Positions 8,541 to 63,443 of a DNA stretch of 64,000 nucleotides are shown piece by piece (within the stretch, counting starts at the first letter, position 1; every line of letters starts with the position of its first letter). Below the pieces are notes generated by a model, which was not told where the DNA came from, made no database searches, and saw nothing but the letters and a program-made list of their open reading frames with translations. Position numbers and translations under genes: made by a program. Source of the stretch: Siphonodentalium dalli (Eukaryota > Mollusca > Scaphopoda > Gadilida > Siphonodentaliidae); contig CP136064.1 of NCBI GenBank assembly GCA_032622095.1, positions 131,055,605-131,119,604 on the forward strand, read 5' to 3'.

Positions 8541-8619
8541 GTTTCTCATTATTGCCTGTGATGGCTTGTGGAAAAGTTTCACAATGCAAGAAAGTATCAA
8601 TATCATCAATAAATCACTT
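8541..8619 (+). CDS. ILKAP: PP2C-type phosphatase, penultimate coding exon (ILKAP-like)
   Basis: A polypyrimidine tract plus AG (8526-8540) precedes the exon and GTGAGT follows at 8620. In phase 1 it reads FLIIACDGLWKSFTMQES and on to the end without stop. ACDGL with its metal-binding Asp is a hallmark of PP2C (PPM) Ser/Thr phosphatases. The 'DGL-aromatic-K-x-FT' form, rather than DGLWDV, matches integrin-linked-kinase-associated phosphatase as I know it. The exon ends on a codon boundary, which agrees with the phase-0 start of the exon at 14265. Upstream exons with the earlier metal-binding motifs are not in the window. A different PPM family member remains possible. Confidence 0.72.
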
Positions 8620-39704: not shown

Positions 39705-41162
39705 ATGACTCAACCAAAACAACATAAACGTGGAAAAACTAACCGCCCAGAGCGGCAAAAAGACCAGGCTTATTTAGACCATTCAAATCTAGTAAAGTTG
39801 CTATACAAAATTCTACAACTTTGGCACCATATTAATTTTTTACAGGACCGTTTGGAGAAGAAGGTCCTTCCGAAAGGCTTTTCGGCCATCGTTGAGTCAG
39901 GGCGAAAGAAGACATTCCGACCAGTGCTCCCCTGTGAGGATGTCTTCAATTCGCTTAAAGCGGACGCTTTTCAGTGGGGTTTAAACTCCATGAAAACTTT
40001 GGTAAATTATTATCGGAAAACGGAATCAGAAATTGAAGTCAAGGTTCTTTCGGCTCTTTCTTCTAAAACCCTTGACTTCGACCGAGCACGTGACACGGCA
40101 TTAAAATGGGGACTGAAGAATTTTGGCACCAAATTAACCAATGAGACAAAATCAAAGTTCTTGAGCATCTGTGGTAATCTTCAGTCCTCGATAGGTACAC
40201 GAGTTGGCGTCCAAACTCATACAAACAAACGTGGTCGGTCACCCTCCCCTCCCCCACTAATCGCTCGCCAGCTTCAATTTCAGGATAGTCCAGGCAGGGA
40301 TCAGACAACGTCGTCGTCTGTGAGATCCACACCAAAACGCGTCAAAGCCACACCACAGCCACAGAGACCTGCACCAAAACCACGGACGTCACGCATATCC
40401 ACTCCACCAAATACATCACTTCAAAATTCACCAGCCAAGAAAACAACACCACCAAAGCACATCTCTTCCAGCCCTCCTTCGCCTGTTGGTTCCATTGCTT
40501 CGATGACATCGCCAGCGATTTCAACATCATCACCATCGTATGCCGAGGTATTATCAACATCACCTAAGGTATCCAAATTTTATAAATTTCGTCAACCTGG
40601 CCCTAAGAAGGATTGGTCCTTCCCTAAACAGATAAAAAACCCTGTTGTTATTTTAGGCTCTTCTAATGTGTCCCGGATCGATGTCGATCCTCCCAAAAAT
40701 GTTTGTATTGCTTCTTACCCAGGTGGCAATTTAGGTCATTTCTGCAACATGGCCCACAAACTGAAATCGAAGCCAGAAAAGACACCTCGACACGTCATCA
40801 TCAACATTGGCATCAACAACCGAGAGGACTGGAAGACAGACAACGACAAAGGCAAAACAGCAGGCACCACAGCTAAAAGCAGGGTAACTAACATGGTTAG
40901 TAATTTCCGAAAAGTTTTTCCTAATGCGACACTTCATTTTCAGGAAATAAATATCTCATTCAGTTTAGATTCTAGGGACCAGGATGTTCTGCGTGCCATT
41001 AACAGCCAAGCTCGTCAGACACAGAACCTCAAGGTCATACAGGCAATACCCCCCCGCGACTTTCACGTTCACGTGGAGAATGACAACATCCACTGGACAT
41101 CACAGACGGCGGCGAAAATCTACCAAGGCTGGACCAACATCTTTAAAGGTCATTTAAACTAA
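39705..41162 (+). CDS. PLE ORF1, PLE-associated domain plus SGNH-like hydrolase
   Basis: 485 residues from ATG at 39705. Residues 20-120 (LWHHINFLQDRLEKKVLPKG and following) resemble the upstream region of vertebrate and invertebrate PLE proteins. Residues 170-290 are a Ser/Pro/Thr-rich, basic, probably disordered linker. Residues 313-480 carry SGNH-type blocks: VVILGSSN (nucleophile Ser at 319-320), NIGINNR (Asn), and ENDNIHW (Asp 460, His 463). The last three codons before the stop are CAT TTA AAC, making TTTAAAC followed by TAA, a -1 frameshift site into ORF2. Copy 3 differs by one residue (Gly 136 to Arg). Confidence 0.85.
   Translation: MTQPKQHKRGKTNRPERQKDQAYLDHSNLVKLLYKILQLWHHINFLQDRLEKKVLPKGFSAIVESGRKKTFRPVLPCEDVFNSLKADAFQWGLNSMKTLVNYYRKTESEIEVKVLSALSSKTLDFDRARDTALKWGLKNFGTKLTNETKSKFLSICGNLQSSIGTRVGVQTHTNKRGRSPSPPPLIARQLQFQDSPGRDQTTSSSVRSTPKRVKATPQPQRPAPKPRTSRISTPPNTSLQNSPAKKTTPPKHISSSPPSPVGSIASMTSPAISTSSPSYAEVLSTSPKVSKFYKFRQPGPKKDWSFPKQIKNPVVILGSSNVSRIDVDPPKNVCIASYPGGNLGHFCNMAHKLKSKPEKTPRHVIINIGINNREDWKTDNDKGKTAGTTAKSRVTNMVSNFRKVFPNATLHFQEINISFSLDSRDQDVLRAINSQARQTQNLKVIQAIPPRDFHVHVENDNIHWTSQTAAKIYQGWTNIFKGHLN
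41153..41159 (+). promoter_or_regulatory. -1 ribosomal frameshift site (TTTAAAC) joining ORF1 and ORF2, copy 2
   Basis: The heptamer T TTA AAC in the ORF1 frame is directly followed by the ORF1 stop TAA. Slipping back one base gives TTT AAA CTA ATT and enters the ORF2 frame, which is open from here to 43525. TTTAAAC is one of the strongest known eukaryotic -1 slippery sequences. Downstream are short hairpin possibilities (GGC-ATCA-GCC at 41174-41183, TCTCG-GCAC-CGAGA near 41200-41213) that could stimulate slippage. Confidence 0.75.
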
Positions 41163-43525
41163 TTCCTCAGAAGGGCATCAGCCATGCGGAAAGAGTCGGT
41201 CTCGGCACCGAGATAGTCAATCTTGTACCCGACCTTTCCCTGAGCGCTGGTGAGAAATCAATACTTAGGTATGGTCTAACCTTTGTTCCTACCCCACCCG
41301 ATCTCAAAGAAACACCACATGTTGTTGAGACGGAGGATGGAACATTGGTTTTACCAGACTCTATGTATGCCATGGAAATGAACGGCGGTCCAGCAAGCAT
41401 GCAATTTAGGGAAGTAACAGCTATGGCTGATTTCTTTCGCAATTCGACAGGTTTAAAAGATCAATTTAAAGAACCTTCGATATGGACCCCCTCTGATCGC
41501 CAGATTGACCACTCCATTCCCGAGGTCGCTGGCTTAGTCAAAACCGACATCACAAATTTACCAAAATTTCACAACGAGGATAACCTCACTAAAGTTGAAA
41601 GAACTGCACTAAAAACTCTTCGCAGCAATAAAAACATTGTAATCAAACCTTGTGACAAAGGCAGCTCGCTCGTCATCATGTCTAAAGAAAATTACATTCT
41701 AGAAGCGACGCGCCAATTAAGCAACACTAAATATTACAAACCATTGGATGGGCCAATTTGGAAATCCAATGTTTTAAGATTCAATCTCATTCTCAAAAGC
41801 TTGCTGGACCAGGACGTTTTAAAGAAAAAACATGTTCAGTATCTAATTGCAAAACCTGAATCCAATAATAGGACATTTTATTTGCTACCTAAAATACACA
41901 AACCTTTGAGCTGTTGGACTAATCCATACACACCACCCGGTCGCCCCATCATCAGCGACGTGGCTTCGGAGTCGTACCACATTTCGGAGTTTATTGATTT
42001 CTATTTGAAACCAATTGCTACCCGCCATCCGAGCTATCTAAAAGACACGGAGGACTTCCTCATTAAATTGTCGAAAATTGAAGTTCCATCTTCTGCTTAC
42101 CTAATTAGTCTCGACGTGGAATCTATGTATACAAATATTGGAATCGATGCCGGATTAAAGTCAATTAAGAATGCATTTGATTTCCACCATGATCCTCATA
42201 GACCTGGAGATGAACTACTTCAATTATTAGAACTTTCTCTTAAAGGGAATGACTTTGAATTTAATGGACGATATTATTTACAGGTCTCCGGCTGCAGTAT
42301 GGGCAAGAAGTTTAGTCCTAATTTTGCCTCAATTTTTGTTGCAGAGTGGGAGAAAGGCGCCCTGGCCAAATCTGATAAACAACCATTAGCCTATTATAGA
42401 TTCTTGGACGACATATTTATCATTTGGACTCATGGTCTGGATGAGTTTAGGGTGTTCTTGGACATCTTGAACAGTCATGACGAATCAATCAAACTCAAAG
42501 AATCAATATCGCAAACCAGCATTGATTTCCTTGATTTAACAATATTTAAGGGCCCACAATTTACATCATGCAACATTTTAGATACAAAACTTTTTACGAA
42601 ACCAACGGATTCTCACCAGCTACTTCATCGTAAATCTTTCCATCCGCCAAAACTTTTCAATGGATTGATTAAATCTCAAATCATTCGATATCACCGGAAC
42701 TGCACGAACAGAAGCGACCTAAATCAAGCTTGTTCAGTGCTTTTCCAGGCTTTACGACCGCGCGGCTACTCTAGTAGATTACTGCGCCAAGTAAAGTCCG
42801 AAACTCTCAGAGAATTGAACTCGTCACGCCATGACCCAACATCGACTGAACCAACAAGGATACGGCACAACCGGCCGGTGTTGGGTAATGGTTCAGCCTC
42901 ATTTTGTCACAAAAAACGATGTTACATCAATACAATAGGATATATCAATACTAGTAACACTTTCACCAGCGAACAAACACGCATATCGTATCAAATGCAT
43001 AGCGAACTTAATTGTGATTCTAAAAATGTAATTTACTTAATCACATGCAAAAGATGCCGTATACAATATGTTGGACAAACAAAAACCTCTCTCAAAGTTA
43101 GAATGTCTAATCATCTTTCCAGTGTTCGCAAAAAACTCGACATGCAAATTTCCGATCATTTCAACTCATCTAATCATGACATTAAATCCCATTTCAGCTT
43201 TCAGCCAATAGAACAGACACCAATTCTAGCCGACGAAGACCAAACCGATTCAATACGCCTAGAACGCGAAAATCATTGGATGGGCGTACTTAAAACATAT
43301 CTTCCGTTCGGACTTAACATTGACTACAAAGGTGTTTCTCGAAATTTCTTGTGCTTTCCTCTGATCTACAATCGTAGAAATGTTGAAATCGCAAACATTT
43401 TCAGAAAAAACTTTGCATTATTAAACACTAAATTGACCGAGCCTCTCGACAAACGGGTTATTATTGCCTACAAGAAAAATCCCAGTTTGAGAGATATGCT
43501 CGTTCGATCTAGACTCAGACCTTGA
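41153..43525 (+). CDS. PLE ORF2, reverse transcriptase with GIY-YIG endonuclease
   Basis: The frame is open from the frameshift site. The first ATG is only at 41363, yet the part before it already encodes the conserved PLE N-terminal motif (IVNLVPDLSLSAGEKSILRY, then GLTFVPTPPDL), so ATG initiation would lose it. Counting from the TTG at 41345: LLPKIHKP about 180, PPGRPIISD about 197, motif A SLDVESMYTN about 255 (Asp 257), SGCSMG 315, motif C YRFLDD with Asp 355-356. A Cys-rich linker (CHKKRC 521-526, CDSKN, CKRC) precedes GIY-YIG: VIYLI 562, YVGQT 575, Arg 586, Glu 641. This is the order RT then endonuclease of canonical PLEs. No lesion is seen. Confidence 0.93.
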   Translation, partial: FKLIPQKGISHAERVGLGTEIVNLVPDLSLSAGEKSILRYGLTFVPTPPDLKETPHVVETEDGTLVLPDSMYAMEMNGGPASMQFREVTAMADFFRNSTGLKDQFKEPSIWTPSDRQIDHSIPEVAGLVKTDITNLPKFHNEDNLTKVERTALKTLRSNKNIVIKPCDKGSSLVIMSKENYILEATRQLSNTKYYKPLDGPIWKSNVLRFNLILKSLLDQDVLKKKHVQYLIAKPESNNRTFYLLPKIHKPLSCWTNPYTPPGRPIISDVASESYHISEFIDFYLKPIATRHPSYLKDTEDFLIKLSKIEVPSSAYLISLDVESMYTNIGIDAGLKSIKNAFDFHHDPHRPGDELLQLLELSLKGNDFEFNGRYYLQVSGCSMGKKFSPNFASIFVAEWEKGALAKSDKQPLAYYRFLDDIFIIWTHGLDEFRVFLDILNSHDESIKLKESISQTSIDFLDLTIFKGPQFTSCNILDTKLFTKPTDSHQLLHRKSFHPPKLFNGLIKSQIIRYHRNCTNRSDLNQACSVLFQALRPRGYSSRLLRQVKSETLRELNSSRHDPTSTEPTRIRHNRPVLGNGSASFCHKKRCYINTIGYINTSNTFTSEQTRISYQMHSELNCDSKNVIYLITCKRCRIQYVGQTKTSLKVRMSNHLSSVRKKLDMQISDHFNSSNHDIKSHFSFQPIEQTPILADEDQTDSIRLERENHWMGVLKTYLPFGLNIDYKGVSRNFLCFPLIYNRRNVEIANIFRKNFALLNTKLTEPLDKRVIIAYKKNPSLRDMLVRSRLRP

Positions 43526-44143
43526 TTAACACGCAGTTCAATTAGCTTTTAGCTTATGTCAACACCATTATCCTTAGTTTGTGCTCAACACAATATTTTA
43601 TGTCAATTTCCGACACAACCCAAACAAATTTAGCTAGTTCCATCTTTGAATGGCAACAATGCTCAACAAATTATTCAATGTCAATTTCCGACACAACCTA
43701 ACAAAATTGATGTCAATTTCTGACACAACCTAACAAAATTTATGTCAATTTCCGACACAACCTAACAAAATTTAGCTAGTTCCATAGAAATAATTACATA
43801 AGAAATCGGATTCCGACCTGTGCCCGCGCTCTCCACACTTTCAAAATATATATATCGCCTGTGCCAGGGATATCTTTTATTTCTATTTACTTAACACATA
43901 TGTATTACTGTCTAATTGCGTACTGTCACTAGGATTTGGATTAGGGGCTTCCGGAAGCCATTACACAACCCATTAAGAACGCGCGATCTTAAATAAACAC
44001 GGGCGTCGTGACGGCGCCAAACATTTTGTATGCATTGTTTCACTGTTTGTTTTAAACAGGAACATAGCTGTTGACACGTCTCTCGAAACCCTGGAGCACA
44101 ATGGGAGCTTATCTCACACGGGTATATAAGATCCATGGAAAAA

Positions 44144-44202
44144 CCTCAACATTCGAACCTAGCTTGCTTCCTGAAGAAGGTAATTCTACCGAAACGTTGA
44201 GG
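44144..44202 (+). ncRNA. Hammerhead-like motif in PLE leader (copy 3)
   Basis: Same layout as 39525-39583. Here the base at 44196 is G instead of A, which can pair with C44150 and lengthens the outer helix from 6 to 7 bp. Confidence 0.45.
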
Positions 44203-44323
44203 CAACTTGACAGTGCGCTCCTAAGTACTTTTTTATTTTATATCTTCGCGTTCCGTTCTTTGTGTATTATATGTTACTAATCATTACCTTTATTCACAGC
44301 CAAAATTCAAGTCCTGGATCAAA

Positions 44324-45781
44324 ATGACTCAACCAAAACAACATAAACGTGGAAAAACTAACCGCCCAGAGCGGCAAAAAGACCAGGCTTATTTAGACCA
44401 TTCAAATCTAGTAAAGTTGCTATACAAAATTCTACAACTTTGGCACCATATTAATTTTTTACAGGACCGTTTGGAGAAGAAGGTCCTTCCGAAAGGCTTT
44501 TCGGCCATCGTTGAGTCAGGGCGAAAGAAGACATTCCGACCAGTGCTCCCCTGTGAGGATGTCTTCAATTCGCTTAAAGCGGACGCTTTTCAGTGGGGTT
44601 TAAACTCCATGAAAACTTTGGTAAATTATTATCGGAAAACGGAATCAGAAATTGAAGTCAAGGTTCTTTCGGCTCTTTCTTCTAAAACCCTTGACTTCGA
44701 CCGAGCACGTGACACGGCATTAAAATGGAGACTGAAGAATTTTGGCACCAAATTAACCAATGAGACAAAATCAAAGTTCTTGAGCATCTGTGGTAATCTT
44801 CAGTCCTCGATAGGTACACGAGTTGGCGTCCAAACTCATACAAACAAACGTGGTCGGTCACCCTCCCCTCCCCCACTAATCGCTCGCCAGCTTCAATTTC
44901 AGGATAGTCCAGGCAGGGATCAGACAACGTCGTCGTCTGTGAGATCCACACCAAAACGCGTCAAAGCCACACCACAGCCACAGAGACCTGCACCAAAACC
45001 ACGGACGTCACGCATATCCACTCCACCAAATACATCACTTCAAAATTCACCAGCCAAGAAAACAACACCACCAAAGCACATCTCTTCCAGCCCTCCTTCG
45101 CCTGTTGGTTCCATTGCTTCGATGACATCGCCAGCGATTTCAACATCATCACCATCGTATGCCGAGGTATTATCAACATCACCTAAGGTATCCAAATTTT
45201 ATAAATTTCGTCAACCTGGCCCTAAGAAGGATTGGTCCTTCCCTAAACAGATAAAAAACCCTGTTGTTATTTTAGGCTCTTCTAATGTGTCCCGGATCGA
45301 TGTCGATCCTCCCAAAAATGTTTGTATTGCTTCTTACCCAGGTGGCAATTTAGGTCATTTCTGCAACATGGCCCACAAACTGAAATCGAAGCCAGAAAAG
45401 ACACCTCGACACGTCATCATCAACATTGGCATCAACAACCGAGAGGACTGGAAGACAGACAACGACAAAGGCAAAACAGCAGGCACCACAGCTAAAAGCA
45501 GGGTAACTAACATGGTTAGTAATTTCCGAAAAGTTTTTCCTAATGCGACACTTCATTTTCAGGAAATAAATATCTCATTCAGTTTAGATTCTAGGGACCA
45601 GGATGTTCTGCGTGCCATTAACAGCCAAGCTCGTCAGACACAGAACCTCAAGGTCATACAGGCAATACCCCCCCGCGACTTTCACGTTCACGTGGAGAAT
45701 GACAACATCCACTGGACATCACAGACGGCGGCGAAAATCTACCAAGGCTGGACCAACATCTTTAAAGGTCATTTAAACTAA
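44324..45781 (+). CDS. PLE ORF1, copy 3
   Basis: Same 485-residue SGNH-containing protein as 39705-41162 with one replacement: Gly to Arg at residue 136 (ALKWRLKNF). All SGNH blocks are intact and the frameshift heptamer precedes the stop. Confidence 0.85.
   Translation: MTQPKQHKRGKTNRPERQKDQAYLDHSNLVKLLYKILQLWHHINFLQDRLEKKVLPKGFSAIVESGRKKTFRPVLPCEDVFNSLKADAFQWGLNSMKTLVNYYRKTESEIEVKVLSALSSKTLDFDRARDTALKWRLKNFGTKLTNETKSKFLSICGNLQSSIGTRVGVQTHTNKRGRSPSPPPLIARQLQFQDSPGRDQTTSSSVRSTPKRVKATPQPQRPAPKPRTSRISTPPNTSLQNSPAKKTTPPKHISSSPPSPVGSIASMTSPAISTSSPSYAEVLSTSPKVSKFYKFRQPGPKKDWSFPKQIKNPVVILGSSNVSRIDVDPPKNVCIASYPGGNLGHFCNMAHKLKSKPEKTPRHVIINIGINNREDWKTDNDKGKTAGTTAKSRVTNMVSNFRKVFPNATLHFQEINISFSLDSRDQDVLRAINSQARQTQNLKVIQAIPPRDFHVHVENDNIHWTSQTAAKIYQGWTNIFKGHLN
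45772..45778 (+). promoter_or_regulatory. -1 frameshift site, copy 3
   Basis: TTTAAAC followed by TAA, identical to copy 2. Confidence 0.73.
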
Positions 45782-48144
45782 TTCCTCAGAAGGGCATCAG
45801 CCATGCGGAAAGAGTCGGTCTCGGCACCGAGATAGTCAATCTTGTACCCGACCTTTCCCTGAGCGCTGGTGAGAAATCAATACTTAGGTATGGTCTAACC
45901 TTTGTTCCTACCCCACCCGATCTCAAAGAAACACCACATGTTGTTGAGACGGAGGATGGAACATTGGTTTTACCAGACTCTATGTATGCCATGGAAATGA
46001 ACGGCGGTCCAGCAAGCATGCAATTTAGGGAAGTAACAGCTATGGCTGATTTCTTTCGCAATTCGACAGGTTTAAAAGATCAATTTAAAGAACCTTCGAT
46101 ATGGACCCCCTCTGATCGCCAGATTGACCACTCCATTCCCGAGGTCGCTGGCTTAGTCAAAACCGACATCACAAATTTACCAAAATTTCACAACGAGGAT
46201 AACCTCACTAAAGTTGAAAGAACTGCACTAAAAACTCTTCGCAGCAATAAAAACATTGTAATCAAACCTTGTGACAAAGGCAGCTCGCTCGTCATCATGT
46301 CTAAAGAAAATTACATTCTAGAAGCGACGCGCCAATTAAGCAACACTAAATATTACAAACCATTGGATGGGCCAATTTGGAAATCCAATGTTTTAAGATT
46401 CAATCTCATTCTCAAAAGCTTGCTGGACCAGGACGTTTTAAAGAAAAAACATGTTCAGTATCTAATTGCAAAACCTGAATCCAATAATAGGACATTTTAT
46501 TTGCTACCTAAAATACACAAACCTTTGAGCTGTTGGACTAATCCATACACACCACCCGGTCGCCCCATCATCAGCGACGTGGCTTCGGAGTCGTACCACA
46601 TTTCGGAGTTTATTGATTTCTATTTGAAACCAATTGCTACCCGCCATCCGAGCTATCTAAAAGACACGGAGGACTTCCTCATTAAATTGTCGAAAATTGA
46701 AGTTCCATCTTCTGCTTACCTAATTAGTCTCGACGTGGAATCTATGTATACAAATATTGGAATCGATGCCGGATTAAAGTCAATTAAGAATGCATTTGAT
46801 TTCCACCATGATCCTCATAGACCTGGAGATGAACTACTTCAATTATTAGAACTTTCTCTTAAAGGGAATGACTTTGAATTTAATGGACGATATTATTTAC
46901 AGGTCTCCGGCTGCAGTATGGGCAAGAAGTTTAGTCCTAATTTTGCCTCAATTTTTGTTGCAGAGTGGGAGAAAGGCGCCCTGGCCAAATCTGATAAACA
47001 ACCATTAGCCTATTATAGATTCTTGGACGACATATTTATCATTTGGACTCATGGTCTGGATGAGTTTAGGGTGTTCTTGGACATCTTGAACAGTCATGAC
47101 GAATCAATCAAACTCAAAGAATCAATATCGCAAACCAGCATTGATTTCCTTGATTTAACAATATTTAAGGGCCCACAATTTACATCATGCAACATTTTAG
47201 ATACAAAACTTTTTACGAAACCAACGGATTCTCACCAGCTACTTCATCGTAAATCTTTCCATCCGCCAAAACTTTTCAATGGATTGATTAAATCTCAAAT
47301 CATTCGATATCACCGGAACTGCACGAACAGAAGCGACCTAAATCAAGCTTGTTCAGTGCTTTTCCAGGCTTTACGACCGCGCGGCTACTCTAGTAGATTA
47401 CTGCGCCAAGTAAAGTCCGAAACTCTCAGAGAATTGAACTCGTCACGCCATGACCCAACATCGACTGAACCAACAAGGATACGGCACAACCGGCCGGTGT
47501 TGGGTAATGGTTCAGCCTCATTTTGTCACAAAAAACGATGTTACATCAATACAATAGGATATATCAATACTAGTAACACTTTCACCAGCGAACAAACACG
47601 CATATCGTATCAAATGCATAGCGAACTTAATTGTGATTCTAAAAATGTAATTTACTTAATCACATGCAAAAGATGCCGTATACAATATGTTGGACAAACA
47701 AAAACCTCTCTCAAAGTTAGAATGTCTAATCATCTTTCCAGTGTTCGCAAAACACTCGACATGCAAATTTCCGATCATTTCAACTCATCTAATCATGACA
47801 TTAAATCCCATTTCAGCTTTCAGCCAATAGAACAGACACCAATTCTAGCCGACGAAGACCAAACCGATTCAATACGCCTAGAACGCGAAAATCATTGGAT
47901 GGGCGTACTTAAAACATATCTTCCGTTCGGACTTAACATTGACTACAAAGGTGTTTCTCGAAATTTCTTGTGCTTTCCTCTGATCTACAATCGTAGAAAT
48001 GTTGAAATCGCAAACATTTTCAGAAAAAACTTTGCATTATTAAACACTAAATTGACCGAGCCTCTCGACAAACGGGTTATTATTGCCTACAAGAAAAATC
48101 CCAGTTTGAGAGATATGCTCGTTCGATCTAGACTCAGACCTTGA
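45772..48144 (+). CDS. PLE ORF2, RT-GIY-YIG, copy 3
   Basis: Intact ORF entered from the frameshift site. It differs from copy 2 by one visible replacement (Lys to Thr in SSVRKTLDMQ, just after the GIY-YIG core start). RT and endonuclease catalytic residues are all present as in copy 2. The first ATG in frame is at 45982. Confidence 0.92.
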   Translation, partial: FKLIPQKGISHAERVGLGTEIVNLVPDLSLSAGEKSILRYGLTFVPTPPDLKETPHVVETEDGTLVLPDSMYAMEMNGGPASMQFREVTAMADFFRNSTGLKDQFKEPSIWTPSDRQIDHSIPEVAGLVKTDITNLPKFHNEDNLTKVERTALKTLRSNKNIVIKPCDKGSSLVIMSKENYILEATRQLSNTKYYKPLDGPIWKSNVLRFNLILKSLLDQDVLKKKHVQYLIAKPESNNRTFYLLPKIHKPLSCWTNPYTPPGRPIISDVASESYHISEFIDFYLKPIATRHPSYLKDTEDFLIKLSKIEVPSSAYLISLDVESMYTNIGIDAGLKSIKNAFDFHHDPHRPGDELLQLLELSLKGNDFEFNGRYYLQVSGCSMGKKFSPNFASIFVAEWEKGALAKSDKQPLAYYRFLDDIFIIWTHGLDEFRVFLDILNSHDESIKLKESISQTSIDFLDLTIFKGPQFTSCNILDTKLFTKPTDSHQLLHRKSFHPPKLFNGLIKSQIIRYHRNCTNRSDLNQACSVLFQALRPRGYSSRLLRQVKSETLRELNSSRHDPTSTEPTRIRHNRPVLGNGSASFCHKKRCYINTIGYINTSNTFTSEQTRISYQMHSELNCDSKNVIYLITCKRCRIQYVGQTKTSLKVRMSNHLSSVRKTLDMQISDHFNSSNHDIKSHFSFQPIEQTPILADEDQTDSIRLERENHWMGVLKTYLPFGLNIDYKGVSRNFLCFPLIYNRRNVEIANIFRKNFALLNTKLTEPLDKRVIIAYKKNPSLRDMLVRSRLRP

Positions 48145-54569: not shown

Positions 54570-55218
54570 GGCTGTCACTCTGGCCCACCCCCTCGCTCGG
54601 GGTCACTCTGGTCAGATTGACAGCCAGCGAGGGGGTGGGCCAGAAAAAATCCAAATCAAATTCTGCGGGCCACTCTGGCCCACTCTGGCCCATGGGCCAG
54701 AGTGGCCCACAGCGAGGGGGTGGACCAGAGTGTCCCGCCCAGGGTCGGTCCAGAGGTTGTGTTAGATTCCAAAGAGTACGGTGAGCGCTTCGAAGGGTTT
54801 TTTTTTTACAGAAAAGAGCACAATTTACTAATGCTTCGATTTTTTCTCGGATTCTAATGGCAGTGTGGTAAGCAAAGGGCGCCCCCATTCGCTGTACACA
54901 CTGAACTTAGAATAATACCGAGCAAAAATAGATGCATTGGTAAATTGTGCAACTTTACCAGTGCATTTTTAACAAAAGCGAAAATCTTCGAATAAATTCG
55001 AAGACGATAGCGTTGTAAAATGCACTTGTAGAAATTGCCGTTCAGTGAAATGTTATGAGATAATGGTAAAATGGTACAGATAAAATTTTCCCGAGTCAAA
55101 TCGGTGTTTTATTCATAGAAATATGATGCTTTTGACAAAAAAAAGAAACACAGCTGATTTGACGTTCGGGGAAAATTGGTAGAAAAACTCAATGACGTTG
55201 TCAACGAGGCCCGCGCAC
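54570..55218 (+). repeat. Left inverted arm
   Basis: Matches 56482-57023 in inverse orientation: 'gaggttgtgttagattccaa', 'gtgagcgcttcgaag', 'aatggcagtgtggtaagc', 'cattcgctgtacacactgaa' and 'tttgacgttcgg' all recur. The outer part repeats TCACTCTGGCCCAC and contains a palindrome around GGGCCATGGGCC-like words near 54690. Confidence 0.88.
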
Positions 55219-55291: not shown

Positions 55292-55741
55292 ATGGATCCA
55301 GTAACGGAATTTCTCAAGACTATTGATGTGCAGTACGACCATGTTCCTGCAACAACGCAAATGTCGAATCCACTGTATGCAGGCATTGTGACACCACGGG
55401 TAGAACAGCAACAGGTACCAATGGTGTATCCGCGAACGGATCAACAACCAGTGTATACACCGCCGGTGAAAACACAACAAATGACTCAACCTGTTATATA
55501 CCAAGTTATCAACAGTTCACAATGGGAAGAACAGACAAAATTGTTACGGAATATTTGGCAGGAAATGAAGGATTTGCGAAAGCAAATAACACAAAAACCG
55601 GCTGAATGTACAATCAACTTGAAACCTCACACGATTGACATACCAATTGAGGTACATGATTTCCAGAAAGAACCTACGAAGCGATCAACATTTGGATCAC
55701 TCGGGAAAGATTTAACAGTGATGAAGAAAGAAAAGAAATGA
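55292..55741 (+). CDS. ORF A of the Polinton-like region, unknown function
   Basis: 149 residues from ATG at 55292. The N-terminal half is Pro/Gln/Thr-rich (TPRVEQQQVPMVYPRTDQQP). Residues about 88-110 (EEQTKLLRNIWQEMKDLRKQ) look like a short coiled coil, and the C-terminus is basic (MKKEKK). Composition suggests a structural or accessory virion protein, but no family is recognised. It has its own upstream module and is followed 21 nt after the stop by a histone-type stem-loop. Confidence 0.6.
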   Translation: MDPVTEFLKTIDVQYDHVPATTQMSNPLYAGIVTPRVEQQQVPMVYPRTDQQPVYTPPVKTQQMTQPVIYQVINSSQWEEQTKLLRNIWQEMKDLRKQITQKPAECTINLKPHTIDIPIEVHDFQKEPTKRSTFGSLGKDLTVMKKEKK

Positions 55742-55761: not shown

Positions 55762-55777
55762 GGCCCTTTTCAGGGCC
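55762..55777 (+). terminator. Histone-type 3' stem-loop after ORF A
   Basis: GGCCCTTTTCAGGGCC: a 6-bp stem with the TTTC loop, matching the replication-dependent histone mRNA consensus (GGYYCUUUUCAGRRCC form). AC follows, and AAAAGATACGCTCTG begins 13 nt downstream, in the place of the U7-binding downstream element. Confidence 0.8.
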
Positions 55778-55978
55778 ACTTAAAATTCACAAAAGATACG
55801 CTCTGTATTATTATGCTATATGATGATCGTATTATAGATATGAAGGGTGGTTGTGGGCTTTTTTTATTGTTAGGGTAGTATTCTTTGATAAATTATGTGA
55901 ACATTCTCTCCAATTTCAGGAAGAATGAACGAATCGTACAGTAGCAATTTCAGAGCGTATCTTTTTAAAAATTTGTGA
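55778..55978. other. Intergenic centre between convergent ORFs A and B
   Basis: Contains the two inverted downstream elements (AAAAGATACG at 55791 and its complement at 55956-55965) and AT-rich sequence. Confidence 0.6.
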
Positions 55979-55994
55979 GGCCCTGAAAAGGACC
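55979..55994 (-). terminator. Histone-type 3' stem-loop after ORF B
   Basis: On the minus strand GGTCCTTTTCAGGGCC, with one U-G wobble in the stem. The AAAAGATACGCTCTG element begins 13 nt downstream, the same spacing as after ORFs A and C. Confidence 0.78.
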
Positions 55995-56007
55995 GTTTTG
56001 GATGGTT

Positions 56008-56436
56008 TCAAAAGAAACCGCACGATGTGTTTGGGTTTGAATACAGCTGAAAGTGGTTTTGGGAACATCGCAACCAAATGGCACAATTGCACGGCTGGCC
56101 TGTCTGTATCCCCCAGAGCGGCAAGAATTCGTAAACTCTATGCCCTGAGAAGATTATGATAGACCACTGCAGTGATGTAGCTGCAAGTCGCACCATCAAT
56201 CTTGACGTCCCCAGCAATCTGGTATGTCGGAACCACCGTGGTGGCAATACAAAGACCCGGTCTCTGTGGTCAGTCATCAGCATAACGGTGTATCTGTAGA
56301 TATCAAAGAAGTTATCTACAGTACCCGTTTCTGCTAAACTCAAAGCCTTCCATATCATCTGTACTTCATCCCCAAACACACCTCTCACCAGCATCCCATC
56401 CTCCAAATAGCTCCGATACAGATCTCGGTAATCCAT
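56008..56436 (-). CDS. ORF B of the Polinton-like region, unknown function
   Basis: 142 residues from ATG at 56434-56436, reading left. The beginning is acidic and well structured in composition (MDYRDLYRSYLEDGMLVRGV). The second half is richer in Cys, Trp and Ser and may reflect an old frameshift. No family is recognised. It is convergent with ORF A inside the inverted arms, and the stop is 13 nt from its stem-loop. Confidence 0.5.
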   Translation of the reverse strand: MDYRDLYRSYLEDGMLVRGVFGDEVQMIWKALSLAETGTVDNFFDIYRYTVMLMTDHRDRVFVLPPRWFRHTRLLGTSRLMVRLAATSLQWSIIIFSGHRVYEFLPLWGIQTGQPCNCAIWLRCSQNHFQLYSNPNTSCGFF

Positions 56437-56481
56437 TTCGGTATGAATGAAGAATGGGGATATCTGTTAATTTTTTATTGA

Positions 56482-56533
56482 AAACGCGCGGACGTCATGC
56501 GTTTTTCTACCAAATTTTTCCGAACGTCAAATC
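56482..56533 (-). promoter_or_regulatory. Shared upstream module of ORF B
   Basis: On the minus strand: TTTGACGTTCGGAAAAATTT, 'ggtagaaaaacgcatgacgt', 'ccgcgcg', then 'tttcaataaaaaa' as a possible TATA-like element. Confidence 0.62.
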
Positions 56534-57023
56534 AATTGTGTTTCTTTTTTTGTCAAAAACATCATATTTCTATGAATAAAACACCGATTTGACTCGGGAA
56601 AATTTTATCTGTACCATTTTACCATTATCTCATAACATTTCACTGAACGGCAATTTCTACAAGTACATTTTACAACGCTATCGTCTTCGAATTTATTCAA
56701 AGACTTTCGCTTTTGTTAAAAAATGCACTGGTAAAGTAGCACAATTTACCAAAGCATCTATTTTTGCTCAGTATTAATCTAAGTTCAGTGTGTACAGCGA
56801 ATGGGAATGCCCTTCGCTTACCACACTGCCATTAGAATCCGAGAAAAAATCTATACATTAGTAAATTGTGCTCTTTTCTGTCAAAAAAACACTTCGAAGC
56901 GCTCACCTTACTCTTTGGAATCTAACACAACCTCTGGACCGATGAATCCGACCTGGGTTGTCACTCTGGCCCACCCCTCGCTGACTGTCACTCTGGCCCA
57001 TGGGTCAGAGTAACAGCCCAGGT
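56482..57023 (-). repeat. Right inverted arm
   Basis: Inverse counterpart of 54570-55218 including the upstream module and the TCACTCTGGCCCAC-type outer repeats. Identity is high but with scattered changes and small indels. Confidence 0.88.
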
Positions 57024-57086
57024 TATGGGACCTGTCACTGACACACCCCACATCGCTCGAGGTATTCCGAAAAAAAAGAATCACAC

Positions 57087-57162
57087 TTGAATTGACGTTC
57101 GGGGATATTTGGTGAAATACGCAATGACGTCGTCAGCGGCGTCCGCGCGTTTCATATAATAT
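57087..57162 (+). promoter_or_regulatory. Shared upstream module of ORF C
   Basis: ATTGACGTTCGGGGATATTT, 'ggtgaaatacgcaatgacgtc', 'gtccgcgcg', then TATA-like CATATAATAT at about 57153, some 35 bp before the ORF. Confidence 0.65.
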
Positions 57163-57195
57163 GGAGCGCAGTGTAGCGTTTTTTTTATCTTCAAA

Positions 57196-57549
57196 ATGTT
57201 CTCTAAACTAAAAGAGAAAATTTTGCTAAAATTCTCTGCCGATGCTCGATTAAAGTATTGGCAGAAGAATGTTAGAGATTCGGAGAGCCATAAGTTAGCC
57301 ATTAGAGCTGGAGTTCAAGAATTCCTGCAAATACGGAGACCTAGTCCTCCCAAGGTGTATGTGGAAACTCCAGAGTGGAAACCCACGTATAAGGAGGGAG
57401 CATTATATCCAGACTTGTCTGAATTTAATCCTCCAAAGCTGCTACCAAGGTGGATTACCACTGAGGCAGCAGAATACATGCAGGATCCATACTGGAGACC
57501 CACATATAACAAGGGGGGATTTTATCCTGATTTGTCTGAATTTTATTGA
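57196..57549 (+). CDS. ORF C of the Polinton-like region, with a duplicated motif
   Basis: 117 residues from ATG at 57196. The N-terminal 45 residues are basic and helical in look (MFSKLKEKILLKFSADARLK). Two related blocks follow: PEWKPTYKEGALYPDLSEF and PYWRPTYNKGGFYPDLSEF, about 40 residues apart, pointing to an internal duplication. Function unknown. The ORF ends 19 nt before a histone-type stem-loop. Confidence 0.62.
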   Translation: MFSKLKEKILLKFSADARLKYWQKNVRDSESHKLAIRAGVQEFLQIRRPSPPKVYVETPEWKPTYKEGALYPDLSEFNPPKLLPRWITTEAAEYMQDPYWRPTYNKGGFYPDLSEFY

Positions 57550-57568
57550 CTCAGCAAACAATTTAAAC

Positions 57569-57584
57569 GGCCCTTTTCAGGGCC
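57569..57584 (+). terminator. Histone-type 3' stem-loop after ORF C
   Basis: GGCCCTTTTCAGGGCC followed by ACCCA, the exact flank seen after most animal histone stem-loops. AAAAGATACGCTCTG begins 13 nt further on. Confidence 0.85.
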
Positions 57585-57685
57585 ACCCAAATTTTTCAAA
57601 AGATACGCTCTGAAATTGCTAAAAAAACGTAACAAGTAATTAAATCAATAATATTTTATTCACCAATTTTAACTTTCTTGGAAGA

Positions 57686-58216
57686 TTATCGCGATAAACG
57701 TCTTTTTCTCTTTCTGCTAGGCAAAGTGTTTTGCTTAATTTCAGTATCGTTAGCGCCTTTGGCTACAGCGTTTATCACTTCCATCTGCGAATCCTCCGTG
57801 TTTAGAATAGTGATTTCATCATTTGACACTCTCAGTTTTCACATCCGCGATCTCGTTAATTGACATCGCGGTTGAGTTGCATTGTTCCCCACTTTTAGCT
57901 TTCACATCCGCGATCTCGTTAGTTGATGTCTCAGTTTGATCAATGTCCATTACATCACATGGTGTGAGATAATCGTTGTCTGATGTGTGCGTCCAAGTAG
58001 ACTTCCCAGGAGTATAGATTCACTCACCATCAATGATGATTTTTTCATCTGATCAATCCTTTTTTTCGTAGTGCCATCACATTGAAAAGCCCAATGTGAA
58101 CTCGAATTGCATCTAAAACAGTTACCGTGTGGTGGTATCCACTTTGTATTCTTTAAAACTTCTAATGCAATTTTTCGTAAATGTTGTATGTTGTTACTCT
58201 GCAATCGTGGATCCAT
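57686..58216 (-). pseudogene. CCHC zinc-knuckle protein gene, frameshifted
   Basis: From ATG at 58214-58216 the minus strand encodes a CCHC knuckle, CFRCNSSSHWAFQC (C-x2-C-x4-H-x4-C), around residue 35, then a basic stretch. The frame closes at 57950, but coding-like sequence continues in other frames (a repeated NEIADVK segment, and finally SRKRKRRLSR before a stop at 57686-57688), so two frameshifts are likely. A knuckle plus a nuclear-localisation-like tail suggests a nucleic-acid-binding protein. It is transcribed divergently from the polymerase. Confidence 0.6.
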
Positions 58217-58247
58217 TGTGAGCGTTCGGTGCGTTATTCAGTCGTCA

Positions 58248-58366
58248 GTGAAATGACGACGTGATGAAAAAGCGCGTCGCTTTTATGCTCTGACACGGAC
58301 GATGACTGCGCATGTCCGTGTCAGAGCATAAAAGCGACGCGATTTTTCATCACGTCGTCATTTCAC
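58248..58366. promoter_or_regulatory. Near-perfect palindromic divergent promoter
   Basis: Arms of 53 bp (58248-58300 and 58314-58366) differ at one position and surround a 13-bp centre. Each arm has a TATA-like CATAAAAG and a TGACGACGTGATG block. It lies exactly between the zinc-knuckle gene (left) and the polymerase N-terminus (ATG at 58368), giving both the same upstream sequence. Confidence 0.75.
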
Positions 58367-58367
58367 G

Positions 58368-61300
58368 ATGAAGCGCCTTGTGCCATATTCAGATAGCGAA
58401 AGCGAACGAGATAATAGAAAGAGAGTGCGACTGGATGATGACTGTAAATATTATACTATAAAAAATCTGACTGATAAATACTCGAGGAAATTTAAAACAG
58501 CATCAAAGAAATACAACATTACATTTCAAGAATTTCATCAACCATTTCAAACTGTTCACAGAATTTTCAAAGATCTGGTGAACAGTTTGAAAGATGAGTG
58601 TGATGCAGGACCAAAAGATCAAATGAGAATTTCCATCTTTCATCCAGGGCTAGATCTAGGGATTCACGTCCCGTTCACTGAAGCAAAAGACCTGACGTGT
58701 GAATTATTGCTTGACAACATAGAAAAAGTTGCACAATCGAACAAAAAATTCTAAATTCATGACGGACAGATGACATTTGATATCACTGTCATGCATATGC
58801 CTACAGGTACGTACCGCAAGACATACCTTACATTATGGAGCATTCGGTGAAAAAAATCAAATGAAAACAGTAAAGAAAAGTATTCTTCTGATTCAGAACG
58901 CAGAAGATAACATGTGTTTTGCGAGGGCTGTCGTTGTTGGTATGTGTAATGCTGACAAAAAAGATACCACTGAATGGAAGCAACAATGGAAACGGATTAC
59001 GAGACCAGCAAGAGCTCCACAACTGGAAGCTGCAAAGTCATTGTTGGATAAAGTGGGGTTATCACACGACACCAGTTGCGGGGCTGAGGAATACAAAATT
59101 ATTCAGGAACAATTATATCCGGAGTATGTTATAAAAATAAATAATCAATTTGCTGACGAAGGCTTTCTTTTTCAACCACCACCAGTTGGGAAAGAAAGTA
59201 AAGTTGTCCATCTATATTTCAATGACAACCACTACGATGTGATCACAACTGTCACAGGATTCCTTGGATGTATTTATTACTGTGAACACTGTGATGTCGG
59301 TTCGAACAACAGAGGTGATCATTTATGTCCATACAAGTGTATGTGTTTCGAGGGTCAGATATGCCCCTTTGAACGATGGATACACTGCATCAAATGTAAG
59401 AGGACTTTTAGAAGTAAACGATGTCTCGACAATCATTTGAAAAAATCACCAAAACAAGACAAAACTATTTGTGATATGATACATAAATGCCAGAAATGCG
59501 GGGTTGATATCGTCACACGAAAGGAGAAAAGACATATCTGTTCGGGAACAAAGAAGTGTAAATACTGTAAGGAAATCGTTCCATCAGACCACAGATGTCA
59601 TATTCAACAGTACGAAAAGAAAGAAATACAGAAAGAAGTAAAGGTACCATTCATATTTTTTGATTTTGAATGTCAACAAGATACTGGTGTTCATATACCC
59701 AATTTTTGTGTTGTACAAACTGCTTGTGAAAATTGTATATGTAAACCCATTGATGAAATATGCAATTCATGTGATTCTGTATTGTCAAATAGAGAATATG
59801 TTTTTAAAGGTGAAAATGTATTGGAAAGATTTAGTAAATGGTTGTTTACACCAACGATCATAAAGGTACAACATGTATTGCTCACAATGCAAGAGGTTAC
59901 GATAGTCAGTTCCTCTTACATTACCTGTTGGAACAATGGAAATTCAAAACCTAATGTTTTATTATGAATGGTAACAAAATACTGAGTTTACAATGTAATG
60001 GTGTTAGAATAATCGATTCATTGAGTTTCATCCCAATGGCATTATCTAAATTTCCAAAAACATTCCAACTTGAAGAAATGGCTAAAGGTGATTTTCCACA
60101 TTGGGAAAACACACATGACTTTCAGAATTACGTAGGACCATATCTAGACAAAAAATACTATAAGCCTGAAATCATGTCTGAGGAAAATAGGGATTCATTT
60201 CTGAAATGGTACGAAGCTAGGGGTGAGGATATTTTTGATTTCCAATAAGAAATTCAAAAGTATTGTAAATCAGATGTAGACATTTTAAGACGTGGATGTG
60301 GCAAATTCAGACTATGTGTAATGGAAACTGATCAAATAGATCCATTCAGGGAAGCAATAACATTAGCTCAAACCTGTAACCTTGCATGGAGAAAAAATTC
60401 ATTACCAGAGAATTCTCTAGGTATAATTTCAGACGCTGGATATCCACAAGCGCGTAAATTTTCAATGAAGCAATTCGATGGCTACAGTACATTGCTACAA
60501 AACAAAATATAAACATAAAACATGCTTTAAATGGTGGTGAAGTTAAAATAGGCAGACATTTTGTTGATGGTTATCATGCAGAATCAAACACAGTGTATGA
60601 AATGTATGGGTGGTTTTTTTTCATGGCTGTCCTACTTGCTATCCAGATAGAAACCGCCGAAACCCATACAGTAATATAACAATGCATGAATTGTATGAAA
60701 AAACAATAAAAACGGAAACTGAAATCAAAAGTTTGGGATGCAAATTAATATGCATCTGGGAACATGACCTGGACAATAAATGTAAAGAAGACAAAAATTA
60801 AAAACAAACTATGGACCAATTCTATTTGCATCAAGACCCAATTAAACCAAGGGAAGCATTATTTGGTGGCAGGACTAATGCTCTAAAATTATATCATGAA
60901 ATAGAACCAAAATCTAAACAGGAAATAAAATATATTGATATATGCAGTTTGTATCCTAGTGTGAATAAATATAGGGAGTACCCTCTTGGTCATCCTGCAA
61001 TTCTAAGTCAGGAACAAATAGGAGACATCAAATCTTACAAAGGACTCATTAAATGCAAAGTATTACCTCCAAATAAATTGTACATTCCAGTGCTACCGAT
61101 CCACTGTAATTTCTGTAATAACAAAATGATATATACATTGTGTAAAACTTGTGCAGAAAATGAAAGTGGACAGTGTAGTCATAAAACTGAACAGCGTGTT
61201 TTAGTTGGAGTTTGGACGCATGTAGAATTATTCAAAGCAATAGAATTGGGTTACAAAATTCTGGAAGTGTATCAAGTTTGGCATTGGACTGAGTGGTCGG

Positions 61301-62196
61301 ACAAAGTATACAGGGATTACATTGATAAATACCTCAAAATTAAACAAGAAGCAAGTGGATATCCAAATTATGTTAAAAGTGAAGAAGATAAAGATAAATA
61401 CATTAAAGATTATTATGAGGTTGAAGGTATAAAACTTGAAGAAAAAAAATTATTAAAAAAACCAGGACTCCGCCAGTGCGCAAAATTAATGATAAATTGC
61501 ATATGGGGAAAAAATGCACAAAATAATATTCTTACTAAAACTGAATATATCTCAGAACCATCCAGATATTTTGAACTACTAACTGATAAAAATATCACCG
61601 TCAAAGCAGTTGAAATATTTGAACAGGATAAATTCATATTATTCAGTTATGAAAATAAAACCGATATTATAGAACCACATCCATCTGCCAATGTAGTTGT
61701 TGCTTCATTTGTCACAGCATATGCACGCTTGGAGTTGTATAAAGTTTTAGAAAAACTCCAAGATAGGGTGTTGTATTTCGACACCGATAGCTGTATGTAT
61801 ATTTTCGATCCAGAAAAAGAAAATATCAAAATTGAAGACAGCTACCTTGGTAAATGGACTGATGAGCATCCAGATGCTAAATTCATGAAATTTGTAGGGT
61901 TAGGACCGAAAAATTATGGATATCAGTACGTGAAAGATGGTGTCATAAAATCTGTATGTAATGTCAAGGGCATCACTCTGGATTATAAAACTAAACAGCA
62001 AATAAATTTTCATTCAATGGTTGAATGTGTTAATGACCGGTCAAATTTTCAACGTGTCATAAACTATCCATGCAGAATTAAACACACAAAGAACCGAGAA
62101 GTAATTAGTGAAGAGCAAACAAAAACATTCCGATCTATGTACAACAAACGACTTGTTGTGGGTGAATACAACACAATTCCTTATGGATGGAATTGA
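58368..62196 (+). pseudogene. Family B (protein-primed type) DNA polymerase, multiply broken
   Basis: Coding pieces lie at 58368-58754, 58777-59967, 59964-60248, 60321-60512, 60610-60801 and 60811-62196, separated by stops (58752, 60246, near 60799) and several frameshifts. Motifs in order: a Cys-rich N-terminal region with several CxxC pairs (59280-59600), Exo I FFDFECQQD near 59660, Exo II around HNARGYDSQF near 59890 in another frame, Exo III YCKSDVDILR near 60265, GGRTNALKLYH near 60865, Pol A DICSLYPSVN near 60940, Pol B LINCIWGKNAQN near 61490, Pol C YFDTDSCMY near 61780. This set is typical of Polinton/adintovirus replicative polymerases. With these breaks the copy cannot make a full enzyme. 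Confidence 0.88.
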
Positions 62197-62792: not shown

Positions 62793-63443
62793 ATGGACGA
62801 ATCATTGTTGTTCAAACATCCCTGTAACATGTTCATATCGGGGCCAAGTGGTTGTGGTAAAACAGATTTTGTTAAGAAATTAATCGAATATAAAGATGAT
62901 TTGTTCAAACCTGTTACATACAAAGTCTTTTGGTGTTACAAAGAATGGCAAAATACCTATAGTCAGATGCAAGAATTTCACAATATTCAATTTATAAATG
63001 GAATACCGGATGATGACAATGAACTTGTCGATGACACAGACTTACCGCACCTCGTCGTTTTTGATGACATGTTAGGTGATAAAGATGAAGAAAAAATTAT
63101 GTTGTGGTTTACAAGAAAAGGACATCACAGAAATACGTCTGTTATTTACATAACCCAAAACATGTTTCAGAAATCTAAAGCGAGTAGAACTTTGAGTTTG
63201 AATGCACATTACATGGTATTATTTCAAAGCGTGCATGATAAAGGCAAAATAAAAATTCTTGCCTCTCAAATGCAAATACTTCATTTAATGCAAGCATATG
63301 ATGATGGAACTTCAACCAATCATGGTTATTTACTACTCGATTTTCACCCAAAAACGGATAAATCGTTGAGACTTAGAACTGATATTTTCCATCGCTGGCT
63401 CACAAATGACGATCGAGGTGCGGTAATATATTCATCGGTATAA
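62793..63443 (+). CDS. FtsK/HerA-type DNA-packaging ATPase
   Basis: Starting at the ATG at 62793 (the frame is open from 62763, but only with a TTG) the protein has 216 residues. Walker A is GPSGCGKTDF about 17 residues in. Walker B is LPHLVVFDDML, followed by YITQN as sensor. This is the short A32-like ATPase of Polintons and related viruses, which packages DNA into capsids. There is no stop or frameshift, in contrast to the polymerase. Start choice is based on the ATG and on non-overlap with the upstream ORF. Confidence 0.88.
   Translation: MDESLLFKHPCNMFISGPSGCGKTDFVKKLIEYKDDLFKPVTYKVFWCYKEWQNTYSQMQEFHNIQFINGIPDDDNELVDDTDLPHLVVFDDMLGDKDEEKIMLWFTRKGHHRNTSVIYITQNMFQKSKASRTLSLNAHYMVLFQSVHDKGKIKILASQMQILHLMQAYDDGTSTNHGYLLLDFHPKTDKSLRLRTDIFHRWLTNDDRGAVIYSSV

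What the first reader, a model, noticed from the sequence alone, without database searches (positions are those of the whole stretch)
55762..57584. Three virus-like ORFs end in histone-mRNA-type stem-loops
Seen: GGCCCTTTTCAGGGCC after ORFs A and C and GGTCCTTTTCAGGGCC after ORF B on the opposite strand. Each is within about 21 nt of the stop, and each is followed by AAAAGATACGCTCTG starting exactly 13 nt downstream. ORF C's loop is followed by ACCCA. Known: this stem-loop plus a purine-rich downstream element directs SLBP/U7 snRNP cleavage of replication-dependent histone mRNAs and limits expression to S phase. The three ORFs are not histones. Inference: a Polinton-like element borrows the histone 3'-processing pathway, which would couple its late genes to host DNA replication and give non-polyadenylated mRNAs.
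Basis: partly seen in the sequence, partly recalled or inferred. Interest (0 to 1): 0.92.

Follow-up and report, generated by a model that had tools for sequence, protein, structure and literature searches.

The report
Viral genes with histone-type mRNA endings
A family of virus-like Polinton elements in an animal genome ends a set of its small genes with the RNA signal otherwise known from histone genes, which probably lets the element make tail-less messages while the host cell copies its DNA.

Summary
The three stem-loops are where stated, each 13 nt before an identical 15-nt element; two pass Rfam's Histone3 cut-off, the third does not (23.5 against 34 bits). They follow accessory ORFs of a Polinton/adintovirus-type element. 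Host H2A, H2B and H4 genes use the same loop and 13-nt spacing, and the host has SLBP. The genome holds 3,200 exact loops against 3 in the control; the first 30 listed all follow element ORFs. Of 40 ORF C copies found by protein, 38 keep the loop, 21 of them exactly. A second family, 71% identical in ATPase but about 30% in ORFs A-C, has it on the same genes plus a fourth. No exact loop follows polymerase, ATPase, integrase or capsid-region genes in the stretches read, so "late genes" is unsupported. Most likely these genes use the host SLBP/U7 pathway. U7 was not found, and tail-less, S-phase-bound mRNA is inferred.

The parts
55292..55741 (+). ORF A, 149 aa, no Pfam or PHROGs family over cut-off; resembles A-type ORFs of a second element family
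   Evidence: 27% identity over 84 columns, E 2e-07, to the ORF at L218
55762..55777 (+). histone-type stem-loop of ORF A
   Evidence: (RF00032, 35.8 bits)
55791..55805 (+). downstream element AAAAGATACGCTCTG of ORF A, 13 nt after the loop
56008..56436 (-). ORF B, 142 aa, no Pfam family over cut-off; homologous to B-type ORFs of the second family over residues 13-142
   Evidence: 31% identity, E 9e-19, to the ORF at L220
55979..55994 (-). histone-type stem-loop of ORF B, with one U-G pair
   Evidence: 23.5 bits, under cut-off
55951..55965 (-). downstream element of ORF B
57196..57549 (+). ORF C, 117 aa, no Pfam family; many copies in the host genome
   Evidence: 152 matches; 150 of 615 candidates scored; 30% identity over 93 columns to an L250 ORF, E 2e-09
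57569..57584 (+). histone-type stem-loop of ORF C
   Evidence: (RF00032, 38.0 bits)
57598..57612 (+). downstream element of ORF C
54797..55143 (+). upstream block of ORF A, inverted copy of the block upstream of ORF B
   Evidence: (arms 91% and 98% complementary)
56545..56892 (-). upstream block of ORF B
57070..57113 (+). shorter copy of the same upstream sequence before ORF C
   Evidence: (86% to 55137-55180)
57950..58216 (-). gene D, sub-threshold CCHC knuckle match; no histone loop
   Evidence: AATAAA 290 nt after the stop, 32 nt after the stop of the similar gene in L250
58246..58369 (.). long palindrome between divergent genes D and E
58368..58754 (+). gene E, resembles part of the L250 ORF at 2271
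   Evidence: by eye
58861..59967 (+). N-terminal piece of the DNA polymerase B reading frame (frame interrupted; read as it stands)
   Evidence: by eye against L250; no Pfam hit
60811..62196 (+). DNA polymerase B piece
   Evidence: DNA_pol_B_2, 7e-29
62793..63443 (+). A32-like packaging ATPase
   Evidence: Pox_A32, 1.4e-07; 199 homologues at E 0.001 or better

Best explanation
ORFs A, B and C are accessory genes of an integrated Polinton/adintovirus-type element. Their mRNAs are built to be finished by the host's replication-dependent histone pathway: SLBP binds the stem-loop, U7 snRNP pairs with AAAAGATACGCTCTG, and CPSF73 cuts between them, leaving a short tail-less mRNA that is stable and translated mainly in S phase. 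The element splits its genes into two classes: small accessory genes with histone-type ends, and the polymerase, ATPase, integrase and capsid-region genes without them. Shown: the signals, their spacing, conservation on homologous genes of two element families, likeness to host histone 3' regions, and a host SLBP gene. Inferred: cleavage, absence of poly(A), S-phase timing, U7 pairing.
For: Rfam hits for two of three sites. Loop and downstream element almost invariant between three copies whose flanks have diverged. Host H2A, H2B and H4 genes carry GGCCCTTTTCAGGGCC with AAAG at 13 nt in 8 of 8 distinct histone contexts held; element genes have 12-14 nt where the motif was found. The 44 nt after the loop align to host H2A or H2B better than shuffles for one example of each of 7 element gene types (best p of three host genes 0.001 or less). 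3,200 exact loops in the genome against 3 for the reversed pattern. 30 of the 30 first-listed follow an A-, B-, C-type or small ORF with the stop 13-48 nt before. 38 of 40 ORF C copies fetched by protein keep the loop (13 of 16 letters or more), 21 exactly. 12 of 12 listed ATPase copies on C1 below 52.08 Mb have an exact loop within 12 kb; random points 1.6%. Conserved with a family of 71% ATPase and 27-31% A/B/C identity. SLBP in the host.
Against: No host U7 gene could be identified, so pairing is untested. ORF B's loop is under the Rfam cut-off and does not win the RNA fold. ORF B has an AATAAA 140 nt past its stop and ORF C an ATTAAA 90 nt past it, so some polyadenylation is possible. The loop-less genes are not clearly poly(A) genes either: of six such ORFs checked in L250, three have AATAAA or ATTAAA within 300 nt. 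A further B-like ORF in L248 (6303-6662) has no loop. 2 of 40 ORF C copies lack the loop, and two of the 38 keep a degraded loop without the downstream element. No transcript data. All relatives come from one genome.
Confidence: 0.85

Rival explanations
1. The loops are used for SLBP binding (export, translation or S-phase stability) but the mRNAs are also or mainly polyadenylated at downstream signals, as reported for some human histone genes with both signals.
For: AATAAA 140 nt after the ORF B stop and ATTAAA 90 nt after the ORF C stop. Human H2AC18 can be processed either way (PMC9756948, passages seen).
Against: No AATAAA or ATTAAA in the 359 nt after the ORF A stop; the downstream element is as conserved as the loop and at the histone distance, which an SLBP-only role would not need.
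Confidence: 0.12
2. Passive hitch-hiking: a host histone 3' end was captured once and is carried along with no function.
For: The sequence after the loop resembles host H2A/H2B. Many copies are decaying: 19 of 40 ORF C copies no longer have the exact loop.
Against: The signal sits on three gene types in both families and a fourth in one, although the A/B/C proteins are only 27-31% identical between families. Loop and downstream element stay nearly invariant while the letters between and after them change.
Confidence: 0.03
3. Chance or another hairpin (terminator-like or DNA-level element) that merely looks like a histone loop.
For: GGYCCTTTTCAGGRCC also turns up in 83 stretches of viral contigs, by look phage terminator-type or coding matches.
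Against: No viral contig matches the wider histone context AANGGYYCTTTTCAGRRCCAC (0 in the scan), which ORFs A and C of the window do match. 0.01 expected in the window; 3,200 against 3 in the genome; in the 30 sites read the loop is on the coding strand just after a stop.
Confidence: 0.005

Closest known systems
Replication-dependent histone mRNA 3' end (Rfam RF00032 Histone3 with histone downstream element)
   Same: Same 16-nt stem-loop, same 13-nt spacing to a purine-rich element, short distance from the stop, uninterrupted short ORFs; two of three window sites over the Rfam cut-off
   Different: The genes are not histones and belong to a virus-like element; stop-to-loop distance 13-22 nt in A, B and C (one A context 176 nt) against 29-36 nt in the host histones read; one gene position of the sister family has two loops in tandem
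Polinton/Maverick elements and adintoviruses
   Same: Family B DNA polymerase, rve integrase, chromodomain ORF, A32-like ATPase, sub-threshold adenovirus-protease match
   Different: No report of histone-type 3' ends in such elements appeared in the paper searches (open-licence papers; listings only); accessory genes A, B, C have no Pfam or PHROGs family
Viral histones (DNA-virus-encoded histone proteins)
   Same: A virus borrowing something from the histone system (PMC9145170, listing and start of abstract seen)
   Different: Here the RNA end signal is borrowed, not the protein

Membership tests
Replication-dependent histone-type 3' end | conserved 16-nt stem-loop close after the stop codon | tested here: met
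   the ORF B site is under the Rfam cut-off
Replication-dependent histone-type 3' end | purine-rich downstream element at the spacing used by the host's own histones | tested here: met
   13 nt in all three; host 13 nt in 8 of 8 contexts held (H2A, H2B, H4; H1 and H3 not read); sequence likeness
Replication-dependent histone-type 3' end | ACCCA or similar before the cleavage site | tested here: inconclusive
   met for ORF C; A has ACTTA, B has TCACA
Replication-dependent histone-type 3' end | complementarity of the downstream element to host U7 snRNA | tested here: inconclusive
   no U7 gene identified: RF00066 best 26.8 bits against cut-off 34, and at that E-value 12 of 14 control genomes also ring; two answered pattern searches gave only chance or repeat matches in what was read; indirect support from likeness to host histone elements
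Replication-dependent histone-type 3' end | host SLBP | tested here: met
   PF15247 in two pieces at C2:174249081-174253053, 60.6 and 31.4 bits against cut-off 27; the weaker piece has one stop inside
Replication-dependent histone-type 3' end | mature mRNA ends after the loop, no poly(A) | not testable with these tools
   no RNA data
Replication-dependent histone-type 3' end | S-phase-restricted expression | not testable with these tools
   no RNA data
Replication-dependent histone gene | encodes a histone | tested here: not met
   A and B have only sub-threshold, non-histone Pfam hits, C none
Polinton/Maverick or adintovirus-type element | family B DNA polymerase | tested here: met
   DNA_pol_B_2 7e-29; interrupted reading frame in this copy
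Polinton/Maverick or adintovirus-type element | retroviral-type integrase | tested here: met
   rve 1.1e-08, 35.7 bits over the 32.6 cut-off, in L248:1149-1622, just right of the window
Polinton/Maverick or adintovirus-type element | A32/FtsK-type packaging ATPase | tested here: met
   Pox_A32 31.7 bits over the 22.8 cut-off
Polinton/Maverick or adintovirus-type element | adenovirus-type protease | tested here: inconclusive
   Peptidase_C5 E 0.0033, 17.6 bits under the 21.3 cut-off
Polinton/Maverick or adintovirus-type element | double-jelly-roll capsid and penton proteins | tested here: inconclusive
   candidate ORFs at L248:2514-3332 and 3722-4537 by position and look; no Pfam hit
Polinton/Maverick or adintovirus-type element | terminal inverted repeats and target-site duplication | not tested
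   element ends were not mapped

The most novel reading that the evidence does not exclude
A virus-like element lineage has turned the host's histone mRNA 3'-end machinery into its own gene-class switch: a regulon of accessory genes with histone-type ends, set apart from its replication and capsid genes. By amplification the element may have come to supply most of the histone-type stem-loops of its host genome, so that its bursts could also compete with histone mRNAs for SLBP and U7.
Probability: 0.5. Interest if true: 0.95.

Novelty: new variant of a known kind. Interest (0 to 1): 0.9.

Why it matters
[quoted passage not shown] A mobile virus-like lineage that puts this end on its own non-histone genes would break that rule and tie a virus-like gene programme to host DNA replication. 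It would also explain how such an element could confine accessory gene expression to dividing cells. The genome gives many copies and two diverged families for a direct test by 3'-end sequencing.

Tried and rejected
Frameshift in ORF B: another frame looked protein-like at first, but a relative is homologous over residues 13-142 of the ORF as it stands (31%), so the idea was dropped.

Relatives in public viral contigs: the PolB scan found none, the ATPase alignment one distant relative (26%), the loop core 83 stretches without histone context, the wider loop context none. Protein-database searches with ORF B and ORF C found no homologue at the thresholds used; ORF A was not searched there.

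Host U7: RF00066 and two answered patterns gave no convincing gene in the candidates read; two further designed patterns did not complete. TCTTTN{0,10}AATTTGTCTAG gave 10 hits against 22 for its reversed control. GAGTATCTTTN{0,14}AATTT gave 294 against 137, with 100 listed, many of them repeats; ten were fetched, plus one RF00066 candidate.

ORF B as an OTU-like protein: a look-alike by eye only; no Pfam hit, one PDB match at E 1.2, and the AlphaFold model of the lone sequence was poor (mean pLDDT 43.5), so it is not claimed.

Copy surveys for ORFs A and B starting from protein were wanted, but the tool was busy each time.

Full report
What is in the window. With up to two mismatches the window holds these three and no others, against 0.01 expected from shuffles. 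They begin 20, 13 and 19 nt after the stop codons of ORFs A (149 aa), B (142 aa) and C (117 aa), and AAAAGATACGCTCTG starts 13 nt after each loop. Rfam's Histone3 model scores 38.0 bits at C and 35.8 at A, over its cut-off of 34; B scores 23.5, below it. Folded alone, A and C form the hairpin, while B, with a U-G pair, prefers another fold. In register, the loop is invariant at 15 of 16 places and the downstream element at 15 of 15, but the spacer at only 6 of 13 and the next 20 nt at 2 of 20. The loop and the downstream element have been kept while the letters around them changed.

What it belongs to. Right of ORF C lie a DNA polymerase B in an interrupted frame and an A32-like ATPase. The next 10 kb outside the window (L248) hold an rve integrase, a chromodomain ORF, a sub-threshold adenovirus-protease match and capsid-region ORFs without Pfam hits. 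This is a Polinton/adintovirus-type element; its ends were not mapped. ORFs A, B and C match no Pfam family over its cut-off and no PHROGs family.

The host. The window's genome is held (2.23 Gb, 9 contigs, unnamed). Histone loci read on C5 and C8 encode H2A, H2B and H4 with GGCCCTTTTCAGGGCC and a similar downstream element; H1 and H3 genes were not read. Among 51 distinct exact-loop contexts held, the window's three included, 8 were histone, 38 were classed as element genes A, B, C or small, and 5 were unclassed. AAAG follows at 13 nt in 8 of 8 histone contexts. In the 38 element contexts it follows at 12-14 nt in 30 and was not found in 8 (2 of 8 A, 6 of 13 small; the regular expression may miss variants, and the first loop of a tandem pair has no element of its own). 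Stop to loop is 29-36 nt in the histones and 13-22 nt in A, B and C, except one A context at 176 nt. The 44 nt after the loop align to host H2A or H2B better than shuffles for one example of each of seven element gene types (best p of three host genes, per type, 0.001 or less). Likeness to H4 is weaker, with p 0.324, 0.116 and 0.124 for three types and 0.006 or less for four. A host SLBP is present in two pieces.

Relatives. The exact pattern GGYYCTTTTCAGRRCC occurs 3,200 times in the genome against 3 for the reversed control. Of the 100 places listed, all on C1, I read the first 30: all 30 follow an A-, B- or C-type ORF or a small ORF, with the stop 13-48 nt before. At the small-ORF position the frame called differs between copies (62 or 86 aa), so its protein is uncertain. 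The 100 listed fall into 33 clusters, 12 of them with five loops. What share of the 3,200 belongs to histone genes was not counted; from the span of the arrays and the 3 loops per unit seen I guess a few hundred, so most would belong to elements, but that is a guess.

Starting from proteins instead of loops: ORF C gave 152 matches (150 of 615 candidates scored). From these I fetched 40 that reach residue 117, 20 from the upper and 20 from the lower part of the list; the middle was not sampled. 38 of 40 have the loop with at least 13 of 16 letters and 21 have the exact pattern. Two have lost it, and two of the 38 (identical to each other in the part printed) keep a 13-of-16 loop without the downstream element. 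Starting from the ATPase (150 of 3,096 candidates scored), 12 of 12 listed copies on C1 below 52.08 Mb have an exact loop within 12 kb, against 1.6% of random points.

Two families. The window's subfamily and a second family share 71% of ATPase residues but only 27%, 31% and 30% over the aligned parts of A, B and C. Many of the second family's ATPase copies score identically, which suggests recent spread. Both put the loop on A, B and C; the second also on the small ORF, with two loops in tandem, the second mostly GGTCC/GGACC, a paired change on both sides of the stem. Gene order differs between the families by the loop positions. So the signal has outlasted large divergence of the proteins it follows.

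Two gene classes. No exact loop occurs in the 18 kb right of the window (L248, L249), no RF00032 hit in L248, and none after E, polymerase or ATPase in the window or L250. Poly(A) signals do not settle the contrast: of six loop-less ORFs checked in L250, AATAAA lies within 300 nt of two (gene D at 32 nt, ATPase at 164 nt) and ATTAAA of a third. In the window, A and B share a long upstream block and C a 44-nt piece of it. Across families the upstream likeness is weak: AAACACA occurs before 6 of 7 loop-class genes compared, but other shared words also occur before D, E or histones. I read A, B, C and the small ORF as an accessory-gene class with its own 3'-end type.

How it most likely works (inference from established histone biology, with passages of PMC7026596 and PMC9756948 seen): SLBP binds the loop, U7 snRNP pairs with the downstream element, CPSF73 cuts between them, and a tail-less mRNA results whose amount follows S phase. 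Shown here are the signals, their spacing, their likeness to the host's own, their conservation and the presence of SLBP. Not shown are U7 pairing, cleavage, tail-less ends and timing. The host U7 gene was not found.

What is in print. Searches of open-licence papers for histone stem-loop or histone mRNA with Polinton gave 0 papers. Wider ones gave 4 papers (none holds SLBP, and stem-loop occurs at most once in each), 0, 7, 36 with 15 listed and 1; of these only listings and starts of abstracts were seen, and none names histone-type ends on such elements there. Subscription journals were not covered, and the adintovirus paper I looked for was not held.

Verdict. A real, conserved and amplified feature: a Polinton-type lineage with histone-type 3' ends on its accessory genes. 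I rate it a new variant of a known kind of element, with high interest because the mechanism is directly testable.

Noticed in passing
L222-L223, L233-L234, L239-L240, L250:79-153: The small ORF of the sister family ends in two histone-type loops about 28 nt apart; in L250 only the second passes the Rfam cut-off (37.1 against 22.2 bits).
   Followed up: partly
57196-57549: ORF C holds an internal repeat with YPDL twice; C-type relatives end in YPDLAEF or YPDLSEF. YPDL recalls late-domain motifs of enveloped viruses (from memory, untested).
   Followed up: no
58246-58369 and L250:2097-2224: Genes D and E diverge from a long palindrome; in L250 the two proteins share their N-terminal sequence, so the likeness extends into the coding parts.
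   Followed up: no
54800-54950 and 56730-56885: Two imperfect palindromes of about 140 nt in the upstream blocks of A and B, folding at -62.8 and -48.9 kcal/mol.
   Followed up: no
L248:6303-6662: A further B-like ORF near the right end of the element without a histone loop.
   Followed up: partly
L248:3342-3719 and 8511-8888: The same 125-aa ORF occurs twice in L248, pointing to a second, partial element copy next to the first.
   Followed up: no
39705-48144: Two tandem copies of a pair of ORFs (485 and 726 aa); the longer looks like a Penelope-type reverse transcriptase by eye (coordinates; name recalled).
   Followed up: no
G000: Many sister-family ATPase copies have identical scores and no stops, pointing to a recent burst of the element in this genome.
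   Followed up: no
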